Shown: positions 42,590 through 62,880 of the stretch, piece after piece | How positions within the stretch are numbered: position 1 is the stretch's first letter | Layout of the letters: each line of letters starts with the position of its first letter | NCBI GenBank assembly: GCA_000611775.1 | Contig: KK106985.1 | Location: 2,258,758 to 2,322,757, forward strand | Source: Umbilicaria muhlenbergii | Lineage: Eukaryota; Ascomycota; Lecanoromycetes; Umbilicariales; Umbilicariaceae | DNA: 64,000 nucleotides | Direction of reading: 5' to 3' | The notes under the pieces: model-generated | Seen by the model: the letters and a program-made list of their open reading frames with translations, nothing else | Told to the model about the DNA's origin: nothing | Databases searched by the model: none | Translations under genes and position numbers: made by a program

Positions 42590-43939
42590 AATTGAAATTG
42601 AACCAGAATCAGAATTAAAATCAGAATTAAAAATCAATCATGATGATCAGAGAAACTGATAACATAGTTTACTCATGAATCAGAGAGTCTTTGTTGACTT
42701 TTATAAATGATGAATAATTCATCTTGAATGAAAACTTGATTAATCAGATCTTAACAGCCTTAACTGCAGAGACTTTAATTAATCTTTTATAAAAACATCT
42801 CTCTGAAGCAATGACTGCTCTTTAATAATTGATCACTGATCATGAGCAGTCCCTGAATGAAATCAACACTGTTATAAAGGCACAAGAAGAACTACAAGTG
42901 AATTATGAAAAAATAAAAGACAAGAACAGAGAACTGAAGAAGAAAGTCATTAAATAAATTAATGTAATAACATATCTTAAATAATGAATCATGATCATCT
43001 TCACAAGCACCCCTTGACCTGATTTCCCTCAACTCACAGTTGAAAGATTATTCAGCTTCAGATTATTAAAGCTCTCTGATTCACTGATGTTCTTCAGTGA
43101 CTGTTTGAAATATGATGAATGAGTAGTGAAGATCAGAAACTACTTACTAACAATAAATGAATAATACTTCATCAAACAGATGAAAATAACATACATGAAA
43201 ACAAGAGTTGAAGGTGACTCAATTAAACACATAAGATTTTAAATGAATTCAGCATCTTGAACAGCTTATTTAAATATTATTAAACTGCTAAAACATTTGA
43301 CCTGAATTTACAGAGACTCAGATCAAAAATATATCATCATTAATGAATTTTATAAACTTTATTAAGAATTCAAAGACTTCTCATCCTTCTGAGCTGATTT
43401 TCAGTGATATGTTACTGAATTGAATGAGTTTTTTAATTTATACTGAATAGGAGAACTTCTGAACAAGGTGAACAACATCATTCAATAATAATTAAACATT
43501 AATGATGACAGACCTGAAGACCTTTATGAACTCATTAAACACTGTCAGTGAATCAATCAGACTTTATGACTGCTTGATGTAAAAAAGATTATTAAATTGA
43601 ATTAAATACTCTTCTTCACAAGTTAAACTCATACAAGAATTGAACATTTTATTAAAATCTTAAAATTAATTACCTGAATGATCACTGAGTCAGTTCCCTG
43701 AATATTGAACTGAACATCACACTCAGACGCTGCCAAAGAACAATAAATGAAGAAAGAACATTATTTTAAATGTAATGAACAGAAACACCTTGTCTTAAAT
43801 TATTTAAATAAGAACAAAATGAAAGAGACTTCAGTATTAAGATGTGTGTAATGAATCATATTCAATTCTGATTCTGATTTTGAATTAAATTCAGGAAAAG
43901 GTGTTCCTCTATTAAAGTCATGATAAAGAACAATGATAA
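42590..43939 (+). pseudogene. Element E gag relic
   Basis: Highly charged N-terminal part (ELEIEPESELKSELKINHDD, about 42590-42650), a helical middle with KAQEELQVNYEKIKDKNREL (about 42880), and a zinc knuckle at about 43760-43803 (HYFKCNEQKHLVLNY, first and last Cys now Tyr). Cut at 43939 by B-minus. Confidence 0.75.
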
Positions 43940-44167
43940 TGTCAGATTATAACATCTCTTACTAAAAAGGAAAGTATAGTTGAGGTATGTGACAGCATGA
44001 GATATAAATGTATAAAAGTTATATGATCTTAACTATATAAAACTAATAACTAAGGAATGAAGGTGAGATTGAGCAGTGCAGAGTTTTCATGTGATTCATT
44101 AACACTGTCAAGTTACTTGTAGGGCGCATGCTTTACATGAGTCTTAAATTGTCATTAACTCATGACA
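43940..44167 (-). repeat. 3' LTR of B-minus
   Basis: 228 bp, reads TGTCAGATTATAACATC ... TTAACTCATGACA on the plus strand. Identical length to its partner at 50546-50773. Confidence 0.93.
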
Positions 44168-44663
44168 ATTGTCTCCCTCTTATGCAGCAGCCCTTCAGCG
44201 CAGAAAGATGAGTGACTGATAGAAGACTCAGTTAACAGTTGAATCAATGATGTGATGTCAACACTGATTAAATGAGATGATAATGAGATGAACTTGTCAC
44301 ATGACAGTGAAAACCCTGAGGAGTGAAGAGATGACAGTGAAGTCATGACAGCATCAGCATGACAGCATTATGATAATGTAATTAAGACCTCAGGTGATGA
44401 TATCACAATAAGAGCTTCAAAATATAAATACTGTTAACTCCTCAGCCTTCTGTCATCAACTTTTGTCAGAGCAGTGACTCATCACTGTAACATCATCAAC
44501 ACATGCTCAAAATGCATCATTTACATCACTGCAACATCAGTCATCATGCCTGTAAGTCAGAGAAACAGGCTCTGCACATGCATGATTAATGCATGACATC
44601 ATATAATGCTCACTCATTGTCAAGTGCTCTGCAGGCCCTCATGCACACCTCATTAAATCATTT

Positions 44664-45290
44664 TGCCTCTGATGCAGTCACCATTTCACTGAAGATATCA
44701 TGCAGGTTTGTGATACTCATGTGAATGTTAAATGCATGTACTATGCAAATCTTCATAAAGCTTATTTTTTAATAAGTTTAACATGCTCATCTGTTGTACC
44801 TCATTAATGATTCAAGGTCCTCACGCGGTTCACCTGCAAGATAAACACATTAATTCACTTAATTAATAAAATTAATATCAACACTCCTTCACCTGCCCTT
44901 CTGACCGCCCTCAAGGTGCATCAAAAGTGTTATAATAAGAAGATTACAGCACATCTTTATGTTGTCAGCTGTCATCAGAAGCTGTTGAAATTAAAGTTTA
45001 CTGTTAAGGTCAATCTCCTGCTTCTTGAGCAGATCAAATGCATCAACAATGCATTTAAAGGTATCTTGAATATCATGTGATATTCAATTTAATCCCCTTC
45101 TCTTCACCTTTGACATGATGATTATGAACAGTTAATGTGCATCTTATTTTAAAAGCATTTGCCTGTCATTGTTGATGACAATGATGATGATGATGATGAA
45201 GATTTCTCTTCTTTTGAGTCAGAGGGGTCAGAGGAACTGAAGAAGAGTGATGAAGATGAGAAGAAGAATGATGATGATGAAGATGAGTAA
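44664..45290 (+). pseudogene. Antisense ORF of B-minus: six-Cys cluster and acidic tail
   Basis: One plus-strand frame of 208 codons ends at TAA 45288-45290, opposite to pol. Seven in-frame stops are of the decay type. It starts further left at a point I cannot fix. From 44664 the pattern is C-x2-C-x11-C-x7-C-x2-Y-x6-Y (VCDTHVNVKCMYYANLHKAY). The sister copy at 61449-61550 has Cys at both Tyr sites. A basic, helix-like middle follows (ALLTALKVHQKCYNKKITAH, LLLLEQIKCINNAFKGIL). The end is strongly acidic (VIVDDNDDDDDEDF, KKNDDDEDE). The cluster resembles Zn(II)2Cys6 but has a longer first spacer. Function unknown. Confidence 0.65.
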
Positions 45291-45539
45291 ATAATGTTTT
45301 GTCAGCATTTTGCTGATCTTGTATAATAATTTCTTTTTCAGCCTGCTCTGATCTGCTGTCACAGCAGTAATAATATTATGCTTTTCTTGTGCTTTGCTGA
45401 TGATTCATCTTCTTTAGTGAACTCATCACTCTTGACTCTTGCTGTAAATCACTTATAAGGCCTTGATAAAACCTGTAAAACCTCTTGAGGAAAATCAGGA
45501 AAGAGTGTTTTTATAACATCAATTAAATCTTTTTAAATC

Positions 45540-48500
45540 ACTTCCTTCTACACTCATTTAATTCATTGTTGAAGACTGTTCATATTTCCTGCACACCTTT
45601 TAAGTTCTTCTTTAACACTCATTAATCATATTCTTCTGATCAACCCTTTCATCTCACTTTGTACAAGATTTCATTCCTGAATTTCTGATGATTTAAAATC
45701 TCTTCAACTTTGTATTCTTCTTCATCATCAATTAGCTTTGAAGGTGACAGCAATGATTTAAAGTCATCATCAGCTCTGCACTGATATGACTTCAGGTAAA
45801 AGATGTGAAAGACATTATAAATCTGATAAATGAGCAGTAAAGTTAACTTGTAAGCTTGCTTCCTTATTAAGTCTTCAATCTGAAATAATTTAATGAATTT
45901 GTGAAATAATTTCCTGCTTAAGCACTTCTGTCATAAGTTCTTCATGAATAATATTATCAAGTCTCTCACATTATAGATCTTGAGTTTATGTTTGACATCA
46001 TAATATTTTGCTTGAGAATTAATTACATTTTCTCATTGTTGTGACAGCGCTTCCTGTATGTCATGAAATCATTTCACTTAATTTTTAACTGTGAGTACCT
46101 CTTCTTTCCTGAAGTCATCCTCAACTTCAAATCTTACTTCTGAATGATAAGCATACATGACATAAAAAGAGCTGCACTCTATTGATGTCTGCATTTCATT
46201 ATTGTAAGTGAATTCTGTCAGAGGTAAAAGATTCATTCAGTTGTCTTGTTCATCTGAGTAATAACAGTGAAAATAATGTTTTAAGGTTTGATTCTGCTGT
46301 TCTGTCTGTCTGTTCATTTGCAGGTGAAAGGCAGTGCTTAATTGATGCTTCATCCTTAAATAATAGCACATTTCTGATCAGAAAGCACTTGTGAAAACTG
46401 ATTTCTAATCAGAGACAGCCCCTTTTGATACATTGAATCAGCATATTATTTCCTCATAAAACAAGTCAGTCAACTCTGTTATCATAATCATTTTCATGAT
46501 TTGAATATACTGAGTCATTTTCATATACTGATTTATAACAATTAAGATCACATCATACACACAATCTCTGCACTTACTTAACAGCAAGTCAGTGATAAAA
46601 TTCATGATGACTTGCTGTCATGATTCTTCTGACTGAGGCAGCACCTGTAGCTCATCATAGAGATGATGTTTAAGCACTTTCACCCTTTGACAGATGTCAC
46701 ATGATGCAACATAATCTTTAACATCTTGACTCATATCAATTCAATAATATTTGTGATTAATCAATTCAAGAGTTCTTTCTACCCTGAAATGCTCTGTTAA
46801 GGCATCATCATGATGACATTTCAAGATCTCTGCTCTTACAGACTTTTCTTTCAGAATGTATATTTATTCCTCATGAAATAAAAGGCCTTCAGAGTCAACT
46901 CTTCAGAGACTTTCAACTTTAGCCTTGCACTTCACTGATGTATAATCAGTGTTGTGTGTCACTTCTACAAATGAATCATCATTTTGTAAAGTTCAAATCA
47001 AATTCCTTAAAGGTAAACTCAGGCTTTCATCAGCTGTTTCATGAATGACAAGATCTCTTATCATCACATGTGAAATGAGTTGTTTGCAATCAACAGTTTC
47101 AGTGACAGGGTTAAGCTGTTTCACAGTTATGTCACAGTCATCATAAGCAGATGTTTTGCTGTCACTCCTTCAGCATTTTTTCTGAAGTTTAAAATCTTTA
47201 ATTCTGATCATTCTCCTCACTCCTGTGAGCAGCTGCCTCACAATAGAGGCATATTTGAATGAGAATATGTTCACAAGAGTGACTAACTTTCTCTGAAGTG
47301 TTGAGAGTAATTTCTTCATAATTTCACTCATCTTTTCAACATCTCTGTAGTCTGATCACCTTGATGATGCATCAGCAGGGTTGGTCTTTTCAGACTGATG
47401 CAGGATATTGAAATCAAAAGCAGTGAACTTCATTGCTCATCATGCTTGCTTATCATTCAATTCCTTCATGTTCATAAATCCTCATAAATTGTTATGATTG
47501 ATTAATACCTCTATGATATGACAACTGCCTTTGAGATAGTGACGTCAGTGTTTAAACATCATAATAATGACAAGGAGCTCCTGATCATGAGTTTCATATC
47601 AGATCTCTGAAGGAGACAGCTTTTTTGATTAAAATGTAACTGAATATCACTGCCTGTTATTCAACAGCTGAGACAGGATGTCAGTGAGCTCAATAATTGA
47701 TGCATCAGTTTTCACCTGTATTCATAACTTCAGATCAAAGTGAATCAGGATAAGCACTGTCATAAAGACTTCATGAAGGTGATCAAACACTTTCTTTGCA
47801 TCACTTGAGAATTTAAAACACTTAAACTTCTTTTCATCCTTGCTACCTTTCATAAGGTTTGTCAAGGGGGCTGCAACTTGTGAATAGCACTTAATAAAGC
47901 ATCTATAAAAGTTCACAAAGCTCAGGAAGACTTATACTTTCTGAAAAGTTCTTAATACTGATCAATCCTGTATGATGTTCACTCATCATGAATTCATGAC
48001 TACGCCTTCAGTTGTGATAATAAACCCTAGGAATTTCACCTTGATAATGAAGAATTCACACTTCTTAAAGTTCATATAAAGTTGAAATCAACAGAGTCAG
48101 TTTAACACCTGCTTAACATGCTCTCAGTGTTGTGCTGATGATTTTGAGTATATAAGAATGTCATTTAAATAGATAACACAAAAGACATTCACAAGCCCTG
48201 TTAATGCTTGATTGATGTAAGCTTGAAACATAACTGAAGTGTTGATCAATCTGAAAGACATGATCATATACTTAAAGTGATTGTAACACATGTGAAATAT
48301 CATCTTTCACTCATCATCATTCTTTATGCAGATATGATGATAAGCGTCCTTTAAATTCAGCTTCATAAATAGCTTGACTTCATTAAGCTGATTCAACATT
48401 TCACTTATAAGAGGTAACAGGTGCCTGTTCTTGATGATCATCTTATTTAACCTTTAATAATCAACACATAACTGCAGCTTTTTATCTTTCTTTAAAACAA

Positions 48501-50500
48501 AAAGAATGAGTGCCTCTGCAGAGCTCATGAAGTGACGGATTCAACCTTTCATTAAGGTGTCATTCAAGTATTCTCATAACACCTTTAATTCAGTATTGAA
48601 GAGGTTATACAAAGAGTCATAAGATGAATCTGTGCTGTTCAGGTCAATTGCATGATCACTGATCTTATGAAATGAAAGGAGGTCAGCATTCTTCATTGAA
48701 AACATATTCACATAATCAATGTACTTCTCAGGTAAAGCTTATGTTATTTCAGCACTTTGTATGCACACCTGTGATGCAGTGTCATCACTCAGACTGATTC
48801 ATATCAGAGTGTAGACAGCAGAGTGATCTTGAATCTTTTTTATAAATTCATCAAGTGACTGTAACTTAATAAACTGCTTCTTAATGTTGAAGCATCACAC
48901 CTTCATTTCACAGTCAATTCACACATGTTCAGTCTTCAATGTGAAAAGTTCAAGGATAAGAGGTGATCCTGACTTATTCAATGCATAAAATACATGTTCA
49001 CATTCATGAGATTATCCTCAACTGTCAGTAAGCTGATAATGCACATGATAAGCACTGAAGCAGTAAGCCTTCTGATCATTCAAGAATTAAGATTAAGGCA
49101 ACAAGCCCTTCATATGAGTCAATTGATGCTCAATAATGAAATGTTGTGAAATCACATTGACTTCAGCTCCCGTGTTCAATAAGGCTTGCATGAGTATGAC
49201 ATCATTATTGTGAAGAACTTGTTCATCAACAATTAAATTAAACTCTGAGGCTACTTTTGTTCAGCACTTCAGTGGCGCAGAGCCTTCATTGAAGTGTTTT
49301 CATTTTTTGATGCTGAAACAGCTGCAACTGAGGTCTTATTCAGGTCTGAGTTTTTTACAGACTGTGAATAATCAGAGGAATAATGTCCCTTCTGATTACA
49401 ATTTCAACAAGTCATGTGTGATAAGTTTTTTATTTCAGGAGCCTTCACTGATCTGCTTTCATGTTTATTATCTCACTTGCTCTTCATCTTGCTCTCATCA
49501 AGCTTATGATCCTTATTCTCTGCAAGCTTTAACAGTGACTCAGATTTGCAGCTGAAGGTAACTGTCATATTAAGATTTGCTTTTGATTTCATGATGTCTC
49601 TCAAATGTAGATTATTCTTCAGATGTGTGATTAAAGTGACAGTTCTCTTTCAAGTTGTGAGTAGATTCTGATAATTCATCAAGGCTGCATGAACCTCAGG
49701 CTTCAATTTTGTGAAGAAGTGAATCCTCATGTGCTCTTCACTGTAAAAAGGTAACTGAGCTTTCAAGGTGCTTAAATAACTATTGAAAGCTTGAACTGAT
49801 TGATGAGGTAGTTAAACAGCATCATTATACAACTGAGTGATGTGAAACTGATGATTCACAGGGTCCTTGATAATGTTGAGCAGGAATTTCATAAAATCAT
49901 TTTAAGTAACAGTGAAATAATCTTTAATCTCATCATCTCACAGTCATGCCTCCTTTGGTTCACTCTTTAAATATTGCATAATGTAAATCACCTTATCCTC
50001 CTCATGAGGGAAATCAGCTGAGTTAAAACAGAAGGTATTTCTTGCATCTCATATTCAATTCAAGTGCTTTTTCACATTCTTGTCATGATATAGCAGCAAC
50101 TCCTTTGCCTGAATTCTTGATCATACATTTCATATTAACAGTGTTTCATCAGTGCAGTGCTTGCTCATTATGAACTCAGCATTCATAGAGTTGAGGAATC
50201 TCTCAGCTGAGGTATCAACATGAGTAGCAGGATCTTTGAGTAGATTGACTTTTAATATTAAAACTTTCATTCAGAGCTGTTGCAGCTCTTGTTGCTTAAA
50301 GAGTTCATCTCATTATCATCTCACTTGCATGATCTCATCATTAATGTTGTGCACTGTTTCACTTGAGGATCCTTCACTCATGAGGTTCACTTCACTGATG
50401 TCTGAGGAAATGAGTGATGTTTCACAGTCATTTTGTTGATTCTTCATCATCATGTCTCATTCTGCTTCAGAAGTTTAATGTAATTGATTTTGAGTTTATA
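45540..50500 (-). pseudogene. B-minus gag-pol relic
   Basis: Gag is at about 50500-49350 with knuckle C*NCNQKGHYSSDY. RT is at about 48650-47950 with CVIYLNDILIYSK, first catalytic Asp now Asn. The connection at 47722-47916 is open for 64 codons (MNFYRCFIKCYSQVAAPLTN). RNase H, integrase with zinc-binding region, and a chromodomain (YKVEEILNHQKFRNEILYKV) follow. Stops are mostly TGA at Trp/Arg sites. Confidence 0.85.
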
Positions 50501-50545: not shown

Positions 50546-50773
50546 TGTCAGATTATAGCATCCCTTACTAAAAAGGGAAGTATAGTTGAGGTATGTGACA
50601 GCATGAGATATAAATGTATAGAGGTTATATGATTCTAATTATATAAAACTAATAACTAAGGAATGAAGGTGAGATCAAGCAGTGCAGAGTTTTCATGTGA
50701 CTCATTAATGCTGTCAAGTCACTTGTAGGGTGCATGCCCTACATGAGTCTTAAATTGTCACTAACTCATGACA
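50546..50773 (-). repeat. 5' LTR of B-minus
   Basis: 228 bp, direct repeat of 43940-44167. The B leader (CCTGAGATAAG region) lies just left of it, as after the 5' LTR of B-plus. Confidence 0.93.
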
Positions 50774-50778
50774 GATAA

Positions 50779-56865: not shown

Positions 56866-57039
56866 TGTTATGATCATATCATAACTTCATTACTGTATTA
56901 TTAATGTATTAACTTTTTTAATCATCTGTTTAAGTCATTACCTGTTTAGATTTAATTTAGTTTAACTCATATATAGCAGGCTTTTACATCATTAGAAGAA
57001 TTCAACCTTCTTATAACATAAATCAAAACATGTTTAATA
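56866..57039 (+). repeat. 3' LTR of element D
   Basis: 174 bp, direct repeat of 36323-36496, ending ATGTTTAATA where the partner has ATGTTCAACA (C-to-T at two sites). Confidence 0.9.
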
Positions 57040-57044
57040 CAAAC

Positions 57045-60000
57045 TTAAAATCAATTACATCAAACTTCTGAAGCAGAATGAGACATGATGATGAAGAATT
57101 AACAAAATGATCATGAAACATCACTCATTTCCTCTGACATCAGTGAAGTGAACTTCATGAGCAGAGAATCCTCAGGTGAAATAATGCACAACATTAATGA
57201 TGAGATTATGCAAGCAAGATGACAGTGAGATGAACTTTTAAAATAATAAAAGTTGCAGCAGCTCTGAACAGAAGTTTTAACATTATAAGTTAATTTACTT
57301 AAAGACTCTGTCACTCATATTGATACTTCAGCTGAAAGATTCTTTAACTTGATGAATGCTGAGTTTGTAACAAGCAAGTGAAGCGCTGATAAAATGCTAT
57401 TAATATGAAATATATGATCAAGAATTCAGGCAAAGGAATTGCTGTTATATCATGATAAGAACATGAAGAAGCACTTAAATTAAATATGAAATATAAAAAA
57501 TATTTTTCATTTTAACTCAGCTGATTTCCCTTATGAAGAGAATAAGATGATTTACATCATGTAATATTTAAAGAGTGAATCAAAGGAGGTGTGACTGTGA
57601 GATGATGAAATTAAAAATTATTTCACTGTTATTTAAAATGATTTTATAAAATTCCTGCTCAACATTATTAAGAACTCTGTGAATCATCAGTTTTACATCA
57701 TTCAATTGTATAATAATGCTGTTTAATTACCTCATTAATCAGTTTAAGCTTTTAATAATTATTTAAGCACCTTAAAAGCTCAGTTACTTCTTTATAATGA
57801 AGAGCATATAAGGACTCACTTCTTCACAAAATTGAAGCCTGAGGTTCAAGCAGCCTTGATGAATTATTAAAACTTACTTATAACTTAAAAGAAAATTATC
57901 ATCTTAACTGCATGTCTGAAGAATAACCTGCATTTAAGAGGTATCATGAAATTGAAAGCAAATCTTAATATAACAGTTATCTTCAGTTATAAATCTGAGT
58001 CATCATTGAAGTCTGCTGAGAATAAGAATCACAAGCCTGATGAGGGCAAAAAGAAGAGCAAGTGAGATAATAAATATAAAAGTGAATCAACAAAGGCCTC
58101 TGAAACAAAGAACTTATCACATGTGACTTATTAAAATTGTAATCAGAAGAGACATTATTCCTCTGATTATTCACAGTTTATAAAAAACTTAAATTTAAAT
58201 AAGATCTCAATTGCAACTGTTTCAGCATTAAAAAATGAAAACACTTCAGTGAAAGCTTCATGCTGCTGAAGTGCTGAACAAAAGTAATCTCAGAGCTCAG
58301 TTTAATTATTGATGAACAAGTTCTTCACAATAATGATATTATACTCATGCAAGCCTTATTGAACATGAGAGTTGAAGTCAATGTGATTTCACAACACTTC
58401 ATTATTGAGCATCAATTGACTCATATAAAGAGCTTGTTACTTTAATTTTAATTCTTAAATGATCAGAAGGCTTACTGCTTCAGTGCTTATCATGTGCATT
58501 ATCAGCTTATCAACAGTTGAGGACAATCTCAAGAATGTGAACATGTATTTTATATTTTAAATAAGTTAGGATCATCTCTTATCCTTGAGCTTTTCATATT
58601 AAAGATTGAACATGTGTGAATCAACTGCAGAATGAAGGTGTGACGCTTTAATATTAAAAAGCAGTTTATCAAGTTACAGTCATCAGATGAATTTACAAGA
58701 GAGATTTAAAATCACTCTGCTGTTTACATCATGATATGAGTCAGTTTAAGTGATGATGTTGCATTAAAGGTGCACATATAAAGTGTTGACATAACATAAA
58801 CTTTAACTGAGAAGTACATTGATTATGTAAATGTGTTTTTAACAGAGAATGCTGACTTTTTTTCATCTCATAAAATCAGTGATCATACAATTGACCTGAA
58901 CAGTAAAGATTCATCTTATGACTTTTTATATAACCTCTTCAATACTGAGCTAAAGGTGTTATGAGAATACTTGAATAACATCTTAATGAAAGATTAAATT
59001 TATCATTTTATGAGCTCTGCAGAGGCACTTATTTTTTTATTTTAAAAAAAGATGAAGAGCTGTGATTATGTGTTGATTATTAAAATTTAAATAAAATAAT
59101 CATTAAGAATAAGCACCTGCTACCTCTTATAAGTGAAACATTGAATCAGCTTAATGAAGCTAAGTTATTTATGAAGTTAAATTTGAAGAACACTTATCAT
59201 TATATTTACATAAAAAAAATTAATGAGTGAAAAATGATGTTCTGCATGTGTTACAGTCATTTTAAGTATATGATCATGCTTTTTAAATTGATCAATGCTT
59301 CAGCTATGTTTCAGATTTATATCAATTAAGCATTAACAGAGCTTGTAAATATCTTTTGTGTTATCTATCTAGATGACATCTTTATATACTTTGAATCATC
59401 AGTGAAACACTGAAAGCATGTTAAGCAAGTGCTAAACAGACTTCATTAATTTCAACTTTACATGAACTTTAAGAAGTGTGAATTCTTCATTATTAAGGTG
59501 AAATTTCTAAAGTTTATTATCACAATTGACAGCGTAGCAATGAACTTGTGATGAGTGAACATCATACAAAACTGATCAGTATTAAAAACTTTTCAAGAAG
59601 TATAAATCTTTCTGAGCTTTGTGAACTTTTATAAATGCTTCATTAAGTGTTATTCACAAGTTGCAGCCCCCTTGACAAACCTTATGAAAGATAACAAGAA
59701 TGAAAAGAAGTTTAAGTCTTTTAAATTCTCAAATGATGCAAAGGAGGTGTTTAACTGTCTTCATGAAATCTTTATGAAAGCACTCATCCTGATTTACTTT
59801 AATTCAAAGTTATGAATATAGGTGAAAACTGATGCATTAATCATTAAGCTCATTGACATCCTGTCTCAGCTGTTGAATAACAGAAAGTGACATTCAGTTA
59901 CATTTTAATTAAAAAAGTTGACTTCTTTAAAGACTCAGTATGAAACTTATGATCAGGAGCTCCTTGTCATTATTATGATGTTTAAACATTAATATCACTA

Positions 60001-61450
60001 CCTTAAAGGCAGTTGTCATATCATAAAGATATTAACTGATCATAATAATTTATGAGAATTTATGAACATGAAGAAATTGAATGACAGATAAGCATAATAA
60101 GTAATAAAGTTCACTGCTTTTAATTTTAATATCTTGCATCAGTTTAAAAAAATCAACTCTGCTGATGTGCTGTCAAGGTGATCAGACTACAGAGATATTA
60201 AAAAAGTGAGTGAAATCATGAAGAAATTACTCTTAACACTTCAGAGAAAGTTAATCACTCTTGTGAATATATTCTCACTCAGATATGCCTTTATTGTGAG
60301 GCAGTTACTCACAGAGGTGAGGAGAATGATTAAAATTAAAAATCTTAAACTTTTAAAAAAATGCTGAAGAAGTAATGACAAAACATCTGCTCATGATGAC
60401 TGTGACATAACTGTGAAACAATTTAACTCTGTCACTGAAACTGTTAATTGCAAACAATTTATTTCACACATGATGATAAAAGATCTTGTCATTCATGAAA
60501 TAGTTGATGAAAGCCTGAGTTTACCTTTAAGAGATTTAATTCAAACTTTACAAAATGATGATTTATTTGTAAAAGCAACACGCAACACTGATTATACATC
60601 AATGAAGTGCAAGGTTAAAGTTGAAAGTCTTTAAAGATTTGACTCTGAAGGCTTTTTATTTTATGAAGAACAAATATACATTCTGAAAAAAAAGTCAGTA
60701 AGAGCAGAAATCTTAAAACATCATCATCATGATGCCTTGACAAGACATTTCAAGGTAGAAAGAATTCTTGAATTAATTAATTATAAATATTATTAAATTG
60801 ATATGAGTCAAGATGTTAAAGATTATGTTGCATTATGTGACATTTGTTAAAGGGTGAAAGTGTTTAAACATCATCTTTATAAAGAGTTACAGGTGTTGCC
60901 TCAGTCAGAAGAATTATAACAGCAAGTTATAATAAATTTTATCACTGACTTGCTGTTAAGTAAGTGCAAGAGTTGTGTTTATGACATAATCTTAATGATT
61001 ATGAATCAGTATATGAAAATGACTTAATATATTTAAATCACAAAAACAGTTACAGCAACAGAGTTGATTGACTTATTTTATAAGAAAATAATATGTTGAT
61101 TTAATGTATCAAAAGGGGCTGTCTCTGATCAGGAATTAATTTTCACAAGTACTTTTTAATTAAAAATGTGCTATTATTTAAGAATGAAGTATCAATTAAG
61201 CACTGCTTTTCATTCACAGACAAATAAACAGACAGAATGATAAAATTAAATCTTAAAACATTATCTTCATTATTATTACTTAAATGAATAAAACAACTGA
61301 ATGAGTCTTTTACCCCTGACAGAATTCACTTACAATAATAAAACACAAGCATCAATAAAGTGCAGCTTTTTTAATGTCATGTATGCTTATCATTTAAAAG
61401 TGAGATTCAAAGTTGAGAATGACTTTAAAAAAGAAGAGATACCTGCAGAC
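57045..61450 (+). pseudogene. B-plus gag-pol relic
   Basis: Gag is at 57050-58200 with a damaged knuckle (Y*NCNQKRHYSSDY). The RT catalytic loop at 59366-59377 still reads YLDD, the only intact one in the window, though stops elsewhere kill the frame. NFYKCFIKCYSQVAAPLTN is at 59621 on. RNase H is at about 59800-60100. Integrase at about 60690-61420 shows TEFTYNNKTQASIKCSFFNV. The protein then runs into the internal deletion, so the integrase tail and chromodomain are missing. Confidence 0.85.
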
Positions 61451-61550
61451 ATGTCTTGTAAAGATGTGCACAATATGTGCATTTTATATTCACTTAAGTG
61501 TCACAGACTTGTGTCATATCTTCAGCAAAGTAATAACTGCATCAGAGACA
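61449..61550 (-). pseudogene. Remnant of the antisense Cys-cluster ORF in B-plus
   Basis: On the minus strand from 61550: C-L-stop-C-S-Y-Y-F-A-E-D-M-T-Q-V-C, then D-T-stop-V-N-I, then KCTYCAHLYKTC. All six Cys are kept with spacing C-x2-C-x11-C-x7-C-x2-C-x6-C. The ORF is cut off right after the last Cys by the internal deletion. This copy shows which residues are original in the B-minus ORF. Confidence 0.65.
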
Positions 61551-61559
61551 AATGAACTT

Positions 61560-62047
61560 AATGAGTTATGCATGAGGATCAGTGAAGCATTTGATGATAA
61601 CTGAACATTATATAATGACTCACATTAAAAGCACATGTGCTGAGTTAGTTTTTTTAACTTACAGATATGATGAGGAGTTGCTGTGATGTTGTTAAGCAGA
61701 AGAAGAGAATAACATGTATTAATATTATGAGAATGAATCAAAGCTCTTGCAAAAGTTGATGACAGAAGGTTGAGGAGTTAATAGTATTTATACTTTAAAG
61801 TTTTTATTATGATATCACTGCTCATGACTTGAGTAGCATTATCATAATGCTGTCATAATTTCACTGTCATGACTTCACTGCTGCTGCTCTGCTTCTCAGG
61901 ATTTTCATGTTCACATGATTAACTCACCTCATTATCATCTCACTTAGTCAGCATCAATGCTGTGTCATCATTTCAACAGTTAATTAAGCTTTTTATGAGT
62001 TACTCACCTTTCTGCGCTAAAGGGCCGCCGCATAGAGGGGAGGCAAT
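61560..62047. other. B-plus 3' UTR
   Basis: Non-coding on the pol strand. It matches the reverse complement of 44168-44630 in B-minus. It ends with a GC-rich stretch GGGCCGCCGC (62023-62032) and the purine tract before the LTR. Confidence 0.6.
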
Positions 62048-62274
62048 TGTCATGAGTTAATGACAATTTAAAACTCATGTAGAGTATGTGCTCTGCAAGT
62101 GACTTAACAGTGTTAATGAGTCACTTGAAAACTTTACACTGCTCAATCCCTCTTCATTCCTTAATTATTAATTTTATATAATTAGGATCATATAACCTTT
62201 ATACATTTATATCTTATACTGTCACATACCCTGACTATACTTCCCTTTTTAATAAGGGATGTTATAATCTCACA
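62048..62274 (+). repeat. 3' LTR of B-plus
   Basis: 227 bp, direct repeat of 36044-36270, TGTCATGAGTTAATGACA ... GTTATAATCTCACA. Confidence 0.9.
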
Positions 62275-62880
62275 GAAAAAAAGATAAGTATAATGTTTTC
62301 TTGTTGTAACTCTCCTTTGACTTATGAATTACATGTTGAATACCTTGTACTGAATCTTCACAATAAGGTCAGGCTGTTTCACTTTCTTTTAATAATAATT
62401 CATTGAGACTGAAGAGGAGAGAATGATGTATTTTTAAATTTTTTTTTATTATTTTCTGTTTTCAGAAGATTTAACAGCAGTGCTGTTATGCAAGAATAAT
62501 TCTTTATGAATTTTCAAAAGAAGTTCATAAAGTTTAAAAAAACTTACAGTTCATGAATATTTTCTGAAGGTAATTATTCTTCAACAGCATGAATTCTTTT
62601 TGAACTTATATGTATGCTTTCAGTATTGATCTTAAACTTTAGGAAGTTTATTTTTATTGCATTAAATAAGCATTTGCTGATCTTAAGATGAAGATCATGA
62701 CATTATAATGTAATTAATACTTATCATACATGCTCCTCATATTCAGATTTATCTTTGCTGAAGATCAAGATATTATCTAAATAAATCATGCAAATTATAT
62801 TAAGAAACTCATTAAAAATCTTATTAATGAAGGCCTGAAACATAGCAGGAGCATTTATGAGATTAAAAAACATAATAAGA
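62275..62880 (-). pseudogene. Element F reverse transcriptase relic
   Basis: This continues F on the far side of B-plus. Minus-strand reading gives INAPAMFQAFINKIFNEFLN and the catalytic loop YLDNILIFSKDKSEYEEHV (Tyr-Leu-Asp-Asn codons at 62772-62783), second Asp changed to Asn. Sequence nearer the F gag is cut off at 62880 by the LINE. Confidence 0.8.

What the first reader, a model, noticed from the sequence alone, without database searches (positions are those of the whole stretch)
44664..45290. Gypsy family B carries an antisense gene with a six-cysteine cluster, confirmed by two copies
Seen: inside the LTRs of B-minus, opposite to pol, a 208-codon frame has only decay-type stops, a cluster C-x2-C-x11-C-x7-C-x2-Y-x6-Y and a very acidic end. 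In the B-plus copy (61449-61550, minus strand) the same stretch reads C-x2-C-x11-C-x7-C-x2-C-x6-C, so the Tyr residues are decayed Cys. Known: fungal Zn(II)2Cys6 proteins use C-x2-C-x6-C-x5-12-C-x2-C-x6-8-C. Inferred: an element-encoded accessory zinc protein made from the strand opposite to gag-pol, perhaps controlling the element or its chromatin target. I know of no named family for it.
Basis: partly seen in the sequence, partly recalled or inferred. Interest (0 to 1): 0.85.

Follow-up and report, generated by a model that had tools for sequence, protein, structure and literature searches.

The report
Hidden antisense gene in fungal retrotransposons
A jumping element in what looks like a fungal genome carries, on the strand opposite to its usual genes, an extra cysteine-rich protein gene that was kept by natural selection and is shared with a second element family; such antisense extras were known in a few plants and fungi, but this one looks like a new, unnamed version.

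Summary
The frame is not a quirk of two copies: 40 copies were aligned, and a protein search of the genome gives 97 family-B matches (some are fragments). Counting transversions only, so that the C-to-T decay drops out, the antisense frame shows strong purifying selection: nonsynonymous/synonymous ratio 0.17 against 0.81-10.5 in the five other frames; reverse transcriptase, the positive control, gives 0.09 (9 sites). A second Gypsy family (C) carries a diverged homologue at the same place; of 36 frame pairings only the two antisense ones stand out. So a real accessory protein gene lies between pol and the 3' LTR, convergent with pol. Corrections: it is probably spliced, because some stops are shared by nearly all copies and are not decay; the sixth cysteine is uncertain; the spacing fails the Zn(II)2Cys6 definition, and no Pfam, PDB or protein-database relative was found. 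Antisense genes at this place are known (Boty brtn; plant aORF-3R/Retand), so this is a new variant of a known kind. Function (a nuclear, nucleic-acid-binding regulator) is inferred from anatomy only. In passing: one copy carries strand-coordinated G-to-T patches that I cannot explain.

The parts
43940..44167 (-). 3' LTR of element B-minus (228 bases); GATAA at 43935-43939
   Evidence: TG...CA ends, 92% identical to 50546-50773
50546..50773 (-). 5' LTR of element B-minus; GATAA repeated at 50774-50778
45541..50500 (-). decayed gag-pol of a Ty3/Gypsy element: zinc knuckle, reverse transcriptase, integrase, chromodomain-like end (limits approximate)
   Evidence: Integrase_H2C2 above its cut-off, RVT_1 and zf-CCHC below theirs; chromodomain by eye only
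44420..44432 (+). TATA-box-like TATAAATA, possible antisense promoter
   Evidence: TATAAATA in at least 35 of 40 copies (six commonest words listed); neighbours are as conserved, so weak
44546..44551 (+). candidate start codon and short first coding exon (ATG + one codon)
   Evidence: ATG in 40 of 40, followed by GTAAGT in 36 of 40; inference
44552..44624 (+). candidate intron 1 (GTAAGT ... AAG)
   Evidence: stop columns 44553 (40 of 40) and 44604 (38 of 40); transversions 1,2,5, so not clearly non-coding; inference, no RNA evidence
44625..44774 (+). Cys block: C-x-R(decayed)-C-x11-C-x7-C-x2-C-x6-C
   Evidence: transversions by codon position 4,1,16; ratio 0.11
44775..44810 (+). joint between blocks; stops at 44805 (40 of 40) and 44808 (39 of 40), either decayed Trp or non-coding
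44811..45076 (+). Leu/Lys-rich block (presumably helical; not modelled)
   Evidence: 2,2,12; ratio 0.19; homologous to family C
45077..45155 (+). candidate intron 2
   Evidence: stops at 45090 (39 of 40) and 45150 (40 of 40); no codon-position bias 2,3,3
45156..45290 (+). Asp/Glu-rich C-terminal tail and stop codon
   Evidence: length differs by small multiples of 3 in 14 of 40; ratio 0.51 (weak)
61428..61553 (-). remnant of the Cys block in copy B-plus; the equivalent of about 44754-46094 is missing there

Best explanation
Shown: family B is a Ty3/Gypsy element with an accessory protein-coding gene on the strand opposite to gag-pol, between pol and the 3' LTR, that was under purifying selection while the elements were active; family C carries a homologous frame at the same place. 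Likely (inferred): the gene has its own promoter just inside the 3' LTR, a very short first exon and two introns, and yields a protein of roughly 200 residues: a metal-binding CxRC-x11-C-x7-C-x2-C(-x6-C) head, a Leu/Lys-rich middle and a long acidic tail. Most likely mechanism (inferred, about 35%): a small nuclear regulator that binds nucleic acid or chromatin through the Cys head and uses the acidic tail to contact histones or the transcription or integration machinery, tuning gag-pol expression or integration of its own element, as proposed for antisense accessory proteins of retroviruses and plant elements.
For: Selection: transversion ratio 0.17 pooled in the antisense frame against 0.81-10.5 in the five other frames of the same blocks; flanking control blocks 0.75 and 1.00; RT positive control 0.09 in its own frame (20 rows, 9 sites); position counts hold without two odd copies, 6,3,31. 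Stops rare and mostly decay-type in the blocks. Length: Cys block unchanged in 40 of 40, middle block in 39 of 40; tail differs by small multiples of 3 in 14 of 40, by a 1026-base insertion in one, by other amounts in 2. Homologue in family C: genome search E 1e-4 to 8e-4 for four C copies, tblastn 9e-6 to 1e-4 for the middle block in three of four, and of 36 frame pairings the two antisense ones score 102.6 and 64.8, the next 42.6. Stop spectra behave as in pol, where three columns that look like chromodomain Trp (assigned by eye; TGG seen in 2 copies at one) are TGA in 35-38 of 39 copies.
Against: No Pfam match at E up to 10 for any of five pieces, no PDB match, no relative among 5.8 billion proteins in three searches. 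Family C alone gives no clear codon-position bias (3,3,5 and 1,2,4). The acidic tail is only weakly supported (0.51; one minus frame gives 0.49). The RT control rests on 9 sites, and the pol C-terminal region gave 1.34 before masking of misaligned copies and 0.46 after. No transcript evidence; introns, start and promoter are read from conservation only. Nothing measured bears on function.
Confidence: 0.8

Rival explanations
1. A host gene captured by an ancestral element (transduction), later passed down and diversified; the undecayed fragment L048 would be a trace of the donor or of a domesticated copy.
For: L048 (C4:1937304-1937465) lies in sequence of 44-52% GC, has an unbroken CLRC-x11-C-x7-C-x2-C stretch, and of seven pieces including pol only the Cys piece matched in the 8.2 kb fetched.
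Against: Its frame closes soon after the Cys part and no relative was found in the protein database. Of the 72 matches I looked only at those already fetched, so whether it is alone is not settled. Concerns origin, not present nature; compatible with the best explanation.
Confidence: 0.2
2. The antisense transcript, not a protein, is what matters (double-stranded RNA or silencing trigger); the open frame is incidental.
For: Antisense transcription is proposed to act this way in other elements (PMC7264820, passages).
Against: Codon-position and synonymous bias specific to one frame and frame-specific homology between families are not expected of an RNA-only function.
Confidence: 0.05
3. Chance open frame produced by base composition, GAT/GAA repeats and C-to-T decay.
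For: The tail is built of trinucleotide repeats and the element is AT-rich.
Against: Shifted plus frames in the same DNA have 6 and 19 times more stops; transversion test p 1.6e-8.
Confidence: 0.02
4. A fungal Zn(II)2Cys6 (Gal4-type) transcription factor domain.
For: Six cysteines with CxxC...CxxC-x6-C and an acidic tail.
Against: First loop is x11, not x6: no length change in the Cys block in 40 of 40 B copies, and x11 without a gap in 12 of 14 C copies; PF00172 not hit; sixth Cys not constant.
Confidence: 0.04

Closest known systems
brtn, antisense gene of Boty-like Gypsy retrotransposons (Botrytis cinerea; Zhao et al. 2011, itself not read)
   Same: Fungal Gypsy element; extra gene antisense to gag-pol between pol and 3' LTR; pol with chromodomain (passages in PMC7264820 and PMC4227169).
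   Different: Sequence of BRTN was not available here, so homology is untested; no zinc cluster is mentioned in the passages seen.
Plant antisense aORF-3R (Grande gene23, RIRE2, Retand with TRP28 domain)
   Same: Same place and orientation; present in most copies; predicted DNA binding or nuclear location; regulatory role proposed (PMC7264820, PMC11963269, passages).
   Different: No TRP28 (PF04195) or other Pfam domain here; Retand is non-chromovirus and of plants.
Zn(II)2Cys6 fungal proteins (PF00172)
   Same: CxxC pairs and acidic region.
   Different: x11 first loop, uncertain sixth Cys, no profile match.
HTLV HBZ-type antisense retroviral proteins
   Same: Antisense-coded nuclear accessory protein (PMC11963269, passage).
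   Different: No sequence or domain relation tested; analogy only.

Membership tests
Ty3/Gypsy LTR retrotransposon (host element) | LTRs with TG...CA ends and target-site duplication | tested here: met
Ty3/Gypsy LTR retrotransposon (host element) | gag zinc knuckle, RT, integrase domains | tested here: met
   six pieces: Integrase_H2C2 28.2 bits (cut-off 25.5) met; RVT_1 (19 of 29.6) and zf-CCHC (16.9 of 20.8) below cut-off in short decayed pieces; three pieces without a hit
Ty3/Gypsy LTR retrotransposon (host element) | chromodomain (chromovirus) | tested here: inconclusive
   no Pfam hit for the typed piece, whose first residues were mistyped; resemblance by eye only
[quoted passage not shown]
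Boty brtn | sequence homology to BRTN | not testable with these tools
   BRTN sequence not held as such; no relative in three protein searches
Retand TRP28 proteins | PF04195 domain | tested here: not met
   Pfam-A, E up to 10, five decayed pieces: none
   x11 in the first loop in 40 of 40 B copies
Zn(II)2Cys6 | binds two zinc ions and DNA | not testable with these tools
   needs an assay

The most novel reading that the evidence does not exclude
A so far undescribed family of fungal retrotransposon accessory proteins whose Cys head is exchanged between elements: in the same 20 rows third-position transversion divergence is 3.6 times deeper in the antisense gene than in RT, and Cys-block distances do not follow RT, LTR or chromodomain-region distances (r -0.07, 0.13, 0.00). 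Against it: the middle block and tail do follow the chromodomain region (r 0.67 and 0.90) and, less, RT (0.30 and 0.60), so the exchange would concern the head rather than the whole gene. Family C shares 82-91% of a B integrase piece but only about 27-33% of the antisense middle block. This would fit a rapidly diversifying regulator, for instance one that senses element copies or counters host silencing. (Odds lowered from 0.3 after restating these correlations.)
Probability: 0.25. Interest if true: 0.75.

Novelty: new variant of a known kind. Interest (0 to 1): 0.52.

Why it matters
Antisense accessory genes of LTR retrotransposons have been noted for years without a known function (PMC7264820, passages), and in fungi Boty brtn is the only named one in the passages I saw. 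Here 40 natural copies give a clean test that such a gene is a selected protein, with its own domain plan and with two diverged families for comparison. It also shows how transversions can be used to see past C-to-T decay in other hypermutated fungal elements.

Tried and rejected
Homology: three searches of 5.8 billion proteins, Pfam and PDB gave no relative. The best Pfam line for L048 was DUF7836 at E 0.053, below its cut-off.

Species: the GH7 search was uninformative (no control rang); Histoplasma was considered from memory and not shown.

The position-class test alone cannot tell the plus frame from one minus frame; resolved by the synonymous test and the frame-pair test. Within the Cys block alone that minus frame gives 0.45, and in the tail 0.49.

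The pol C-terminal region failed as a first positive control because some copies were misaligned there (ratio 1.34); after masking it gave 0.46, and RT gave 0.09. L010 and L038 were dropped as near-duplicates; L017 and L044 too in one part of 69; one of 20 fetched RT stretches (L075) was too short and left out. One search stopped with an error in its last block and was redone.

A hammerhead-like CTGANGA near 44803 was considered and dropped: no Rfam hit in the window at gathering scores. An intron between Cys and middle blocks in B was considered; no donor/acceptor pair in phase was found by eye. No structure was predicted: rows fetched from the held genome are not on that tool's list of allowed inputs, and a lone decayed piece would give a poor model.

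Papers: PMC8365987, PMC7264820, PMC4227169, PMC8725592, PMC4427930, PMC3248453 and PMC11963269 were seen as passages found by term only; PMC11540331 gave no passage for the terms; the rest as search listings. That I found no zinc-cluster antisense gene of fungal elements in print rests on searches of an open-licence library. I recall, from no call, many fungal hypothetical proteins with CxRC...CxxC motifs near transposons; this was not confirmed.

Full report
Place. The window is G000:C5:2258758-2322757 of an unnamed 34.8 Mb genome in 7 contigs. The finding lies in a full-length LTR element, B-minus: LTRs 43940-44167 and 50546-50773 (228 bases each, 92% alike), both ends flanked by GATAA. Gag-pol runs on the minus strand and, in six short decayed pieces, shows integrase H2C2 above its Pfam cut-off and RT and zinc-knuckle matches below theirs. 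The antisense stretch lies between the end of pol (near 45541) and the 3' LTR, convergent with pol. The copies are decayed by C-to-T changes strongest at CpG (81% T), then CpC (46%), CpT (30%) and CpA (20%), so not classical CpA-type RIP (the classical preference is recalled).

Observation. The motif and the acidic end are as reported in both copies. The genome holds many more: 40 copies scored of 97 candidates in the DNA search, and 102 protein matches, 97 of them family B, a few being fragments of one copy, and five more distant. I fetched 39 copies and aligned them with the window copy.

Is it coding? C-to-T decay makes plain dN/dS useless, so I used transversions, which mostly predate decay. 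In the three exon-like blocks the polymorphic transversion sites fall 7, 3, 32 on codon positions 1, 2, 3 (8, 3, 33 after masking and with slightly longer blocks). Outside they are nearly even: 7, 9, 11 in 44180-44551, 2, 3, 3 in 45077-45155, 6, 3, 7 in 45291-45540; 44552-44624 leans the same way with few sites, 1, 2, 5. The nonsynonymous/synonymous transversion ratio, scaled by possible changes, is 0.17 in the antisense frame and 2.38, 2.92, 3.71, 0.81 and 10.52 in the five others. By block: Cys 0.11, middle 0.19, tail 0.51. RT in its own frame, 20 rows, gives 0.09 (9 sites: 1, 1, 7). Removing the odd copies L017 and L044 leaves 6, 3, 31. Stops occupy 61 of 7268 cells against 379 and 1138 of 7187 in the shifted plus frames; 57 of the 61 are in four columns with Arg- or Gln-type spectra, the other four are singletons.

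What kind of stops? In pol, three columns that look like chromodomain Trp are TGA in 35 to 38 of 39 copies, whereas Arg codons should scatter into TGA, TGT, CAA, CAT and so on. Column 44670, inside the first Cys pair, has TGA 23, TGT 9, CAA 4, TAA 2, CGT 1, CAT 1: an Arg codon, so the head reads CxRC. Columns 44805 and 44808 look Trp-like or non-coding. Columns 44604, 45090 and 45150 are stops in 38, 39 and 40 of 40 and do not fit decay; with GTAAGT after ATG at 44546 (36 and 40 of 40) they suggest introns at about 44552-44624 and 45077-45155. This gene model is inference.

The cysteines. Cys is kept in 37, 40, 39, 40, 33 and 25 of 40 copies. G-to-A after T averages about 19% at sites where G is seen at least twice, so Tyr in 3, 7 and 15 copies could be decay; but column 6 is Tyr in 10 of 14 family-C copies and in the undecayed fragment L048, so five cysteines are firm and the sixth is not.

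A second family. Family C (12 matches at E <= 1.3e-34, 19 before family B begins, some of them fragments of one copy) has integrase pieces 82-91% identical to B in four copies, and an antisense middle block about 27-33% identical in three of these four, convergent with the chromodomain-like end as in B. Comparing all six frames of four B with all six of four C copies, B's antisense frame against C's two antisense frames scores 102.6 and 64.8; the other 34 pairings reach at most 42.6. In protein-guided alignment, codon positions are 48, 62 and 24% identical in the middle block (such alignment favours positions 1 and 2). Within C alone the transversion test is too weak to tell. In C the two blocks are in different frames, which needs an intron or a shift there.

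Mosaic elements. In 20 rows with both segments, third-position transversion differences average 0.067 in the antisense gene and 0.019 in RT; Cys-block distances correlate with the middle block (r 0.46) but not with RT (-0.07), LTR (0.13) or the chromodomain region (0.00), whereas the middle block and tail do follow the chromodomain region (0.67, 0.90). Exchange of the Cys head between elements is the simplest reading, not proved.

Comparison with the known. [quoted passage not shown] Retand proteins carry TRP28 with predicted DNA binding (PMC7264820, PMC4227169, PMC11963269, passages). This gene belongs to that class by place, orientation and conservation. It is not shown to be brtn (sequence not available), shows no TRP28 match and does not meet the Zn(II)2Cys6 spacing.

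Mechanism. Anatomy (Cys head, Leu/Lys-rich middle, acidic tail) fits a nuclear nucleic-acid or chromatin-binding regulator of the element; I hold that at about 35%, and that it is a selected protein gene at above 90%. No functional evidence exists here.

Noticed in passing
L017/L088 = G000:C1:8780000-8789500 (full-length B copy, window-equivalent 44712-45921 and about 48091 to 49100): Strand-coordinated G-to-T patches: in patch 1, 57 of 273 G-class sites are T, with 0 of 257 A-only sites to T and 0 of 316 C sites to A; 0 of 199 and 0 of 186 G sites changed on either side (five badly aligned copies left out of the comparison). A second patch has 33 G-to-T and one A-to-T and ends before 49150. 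Changes are on the strand opposite to gag-pol; among the ten copies listed with most private transversions only this one is one-directional. Looks like clustered damage of single-stranded DNA (8-oxoguanine-like) or an artefact; unexplained.
   Followed up: partly
L048 = G000:C4:1933331-1941507, about C4:1937304-1937465 (+): Undecayed, normal-GC stretch with an open CLRC-x11-C-x7-C-x2-C segment homologous to the antisense genes, no pol piece matched in the 8.2 kb fetched: relic, donor or domesticated copy.
   Followed up: partly
window 13000-64000 and family-B copies: Decay prefers CpG and CpC over CpA, unlike the CpA preference that I recall for classical RIP.
   Followed up: partly
window 57037-62275: B-plus copy is an inverted partner of B-minus that lacks the equivalent of about 44754-46094.
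   Followed up: no
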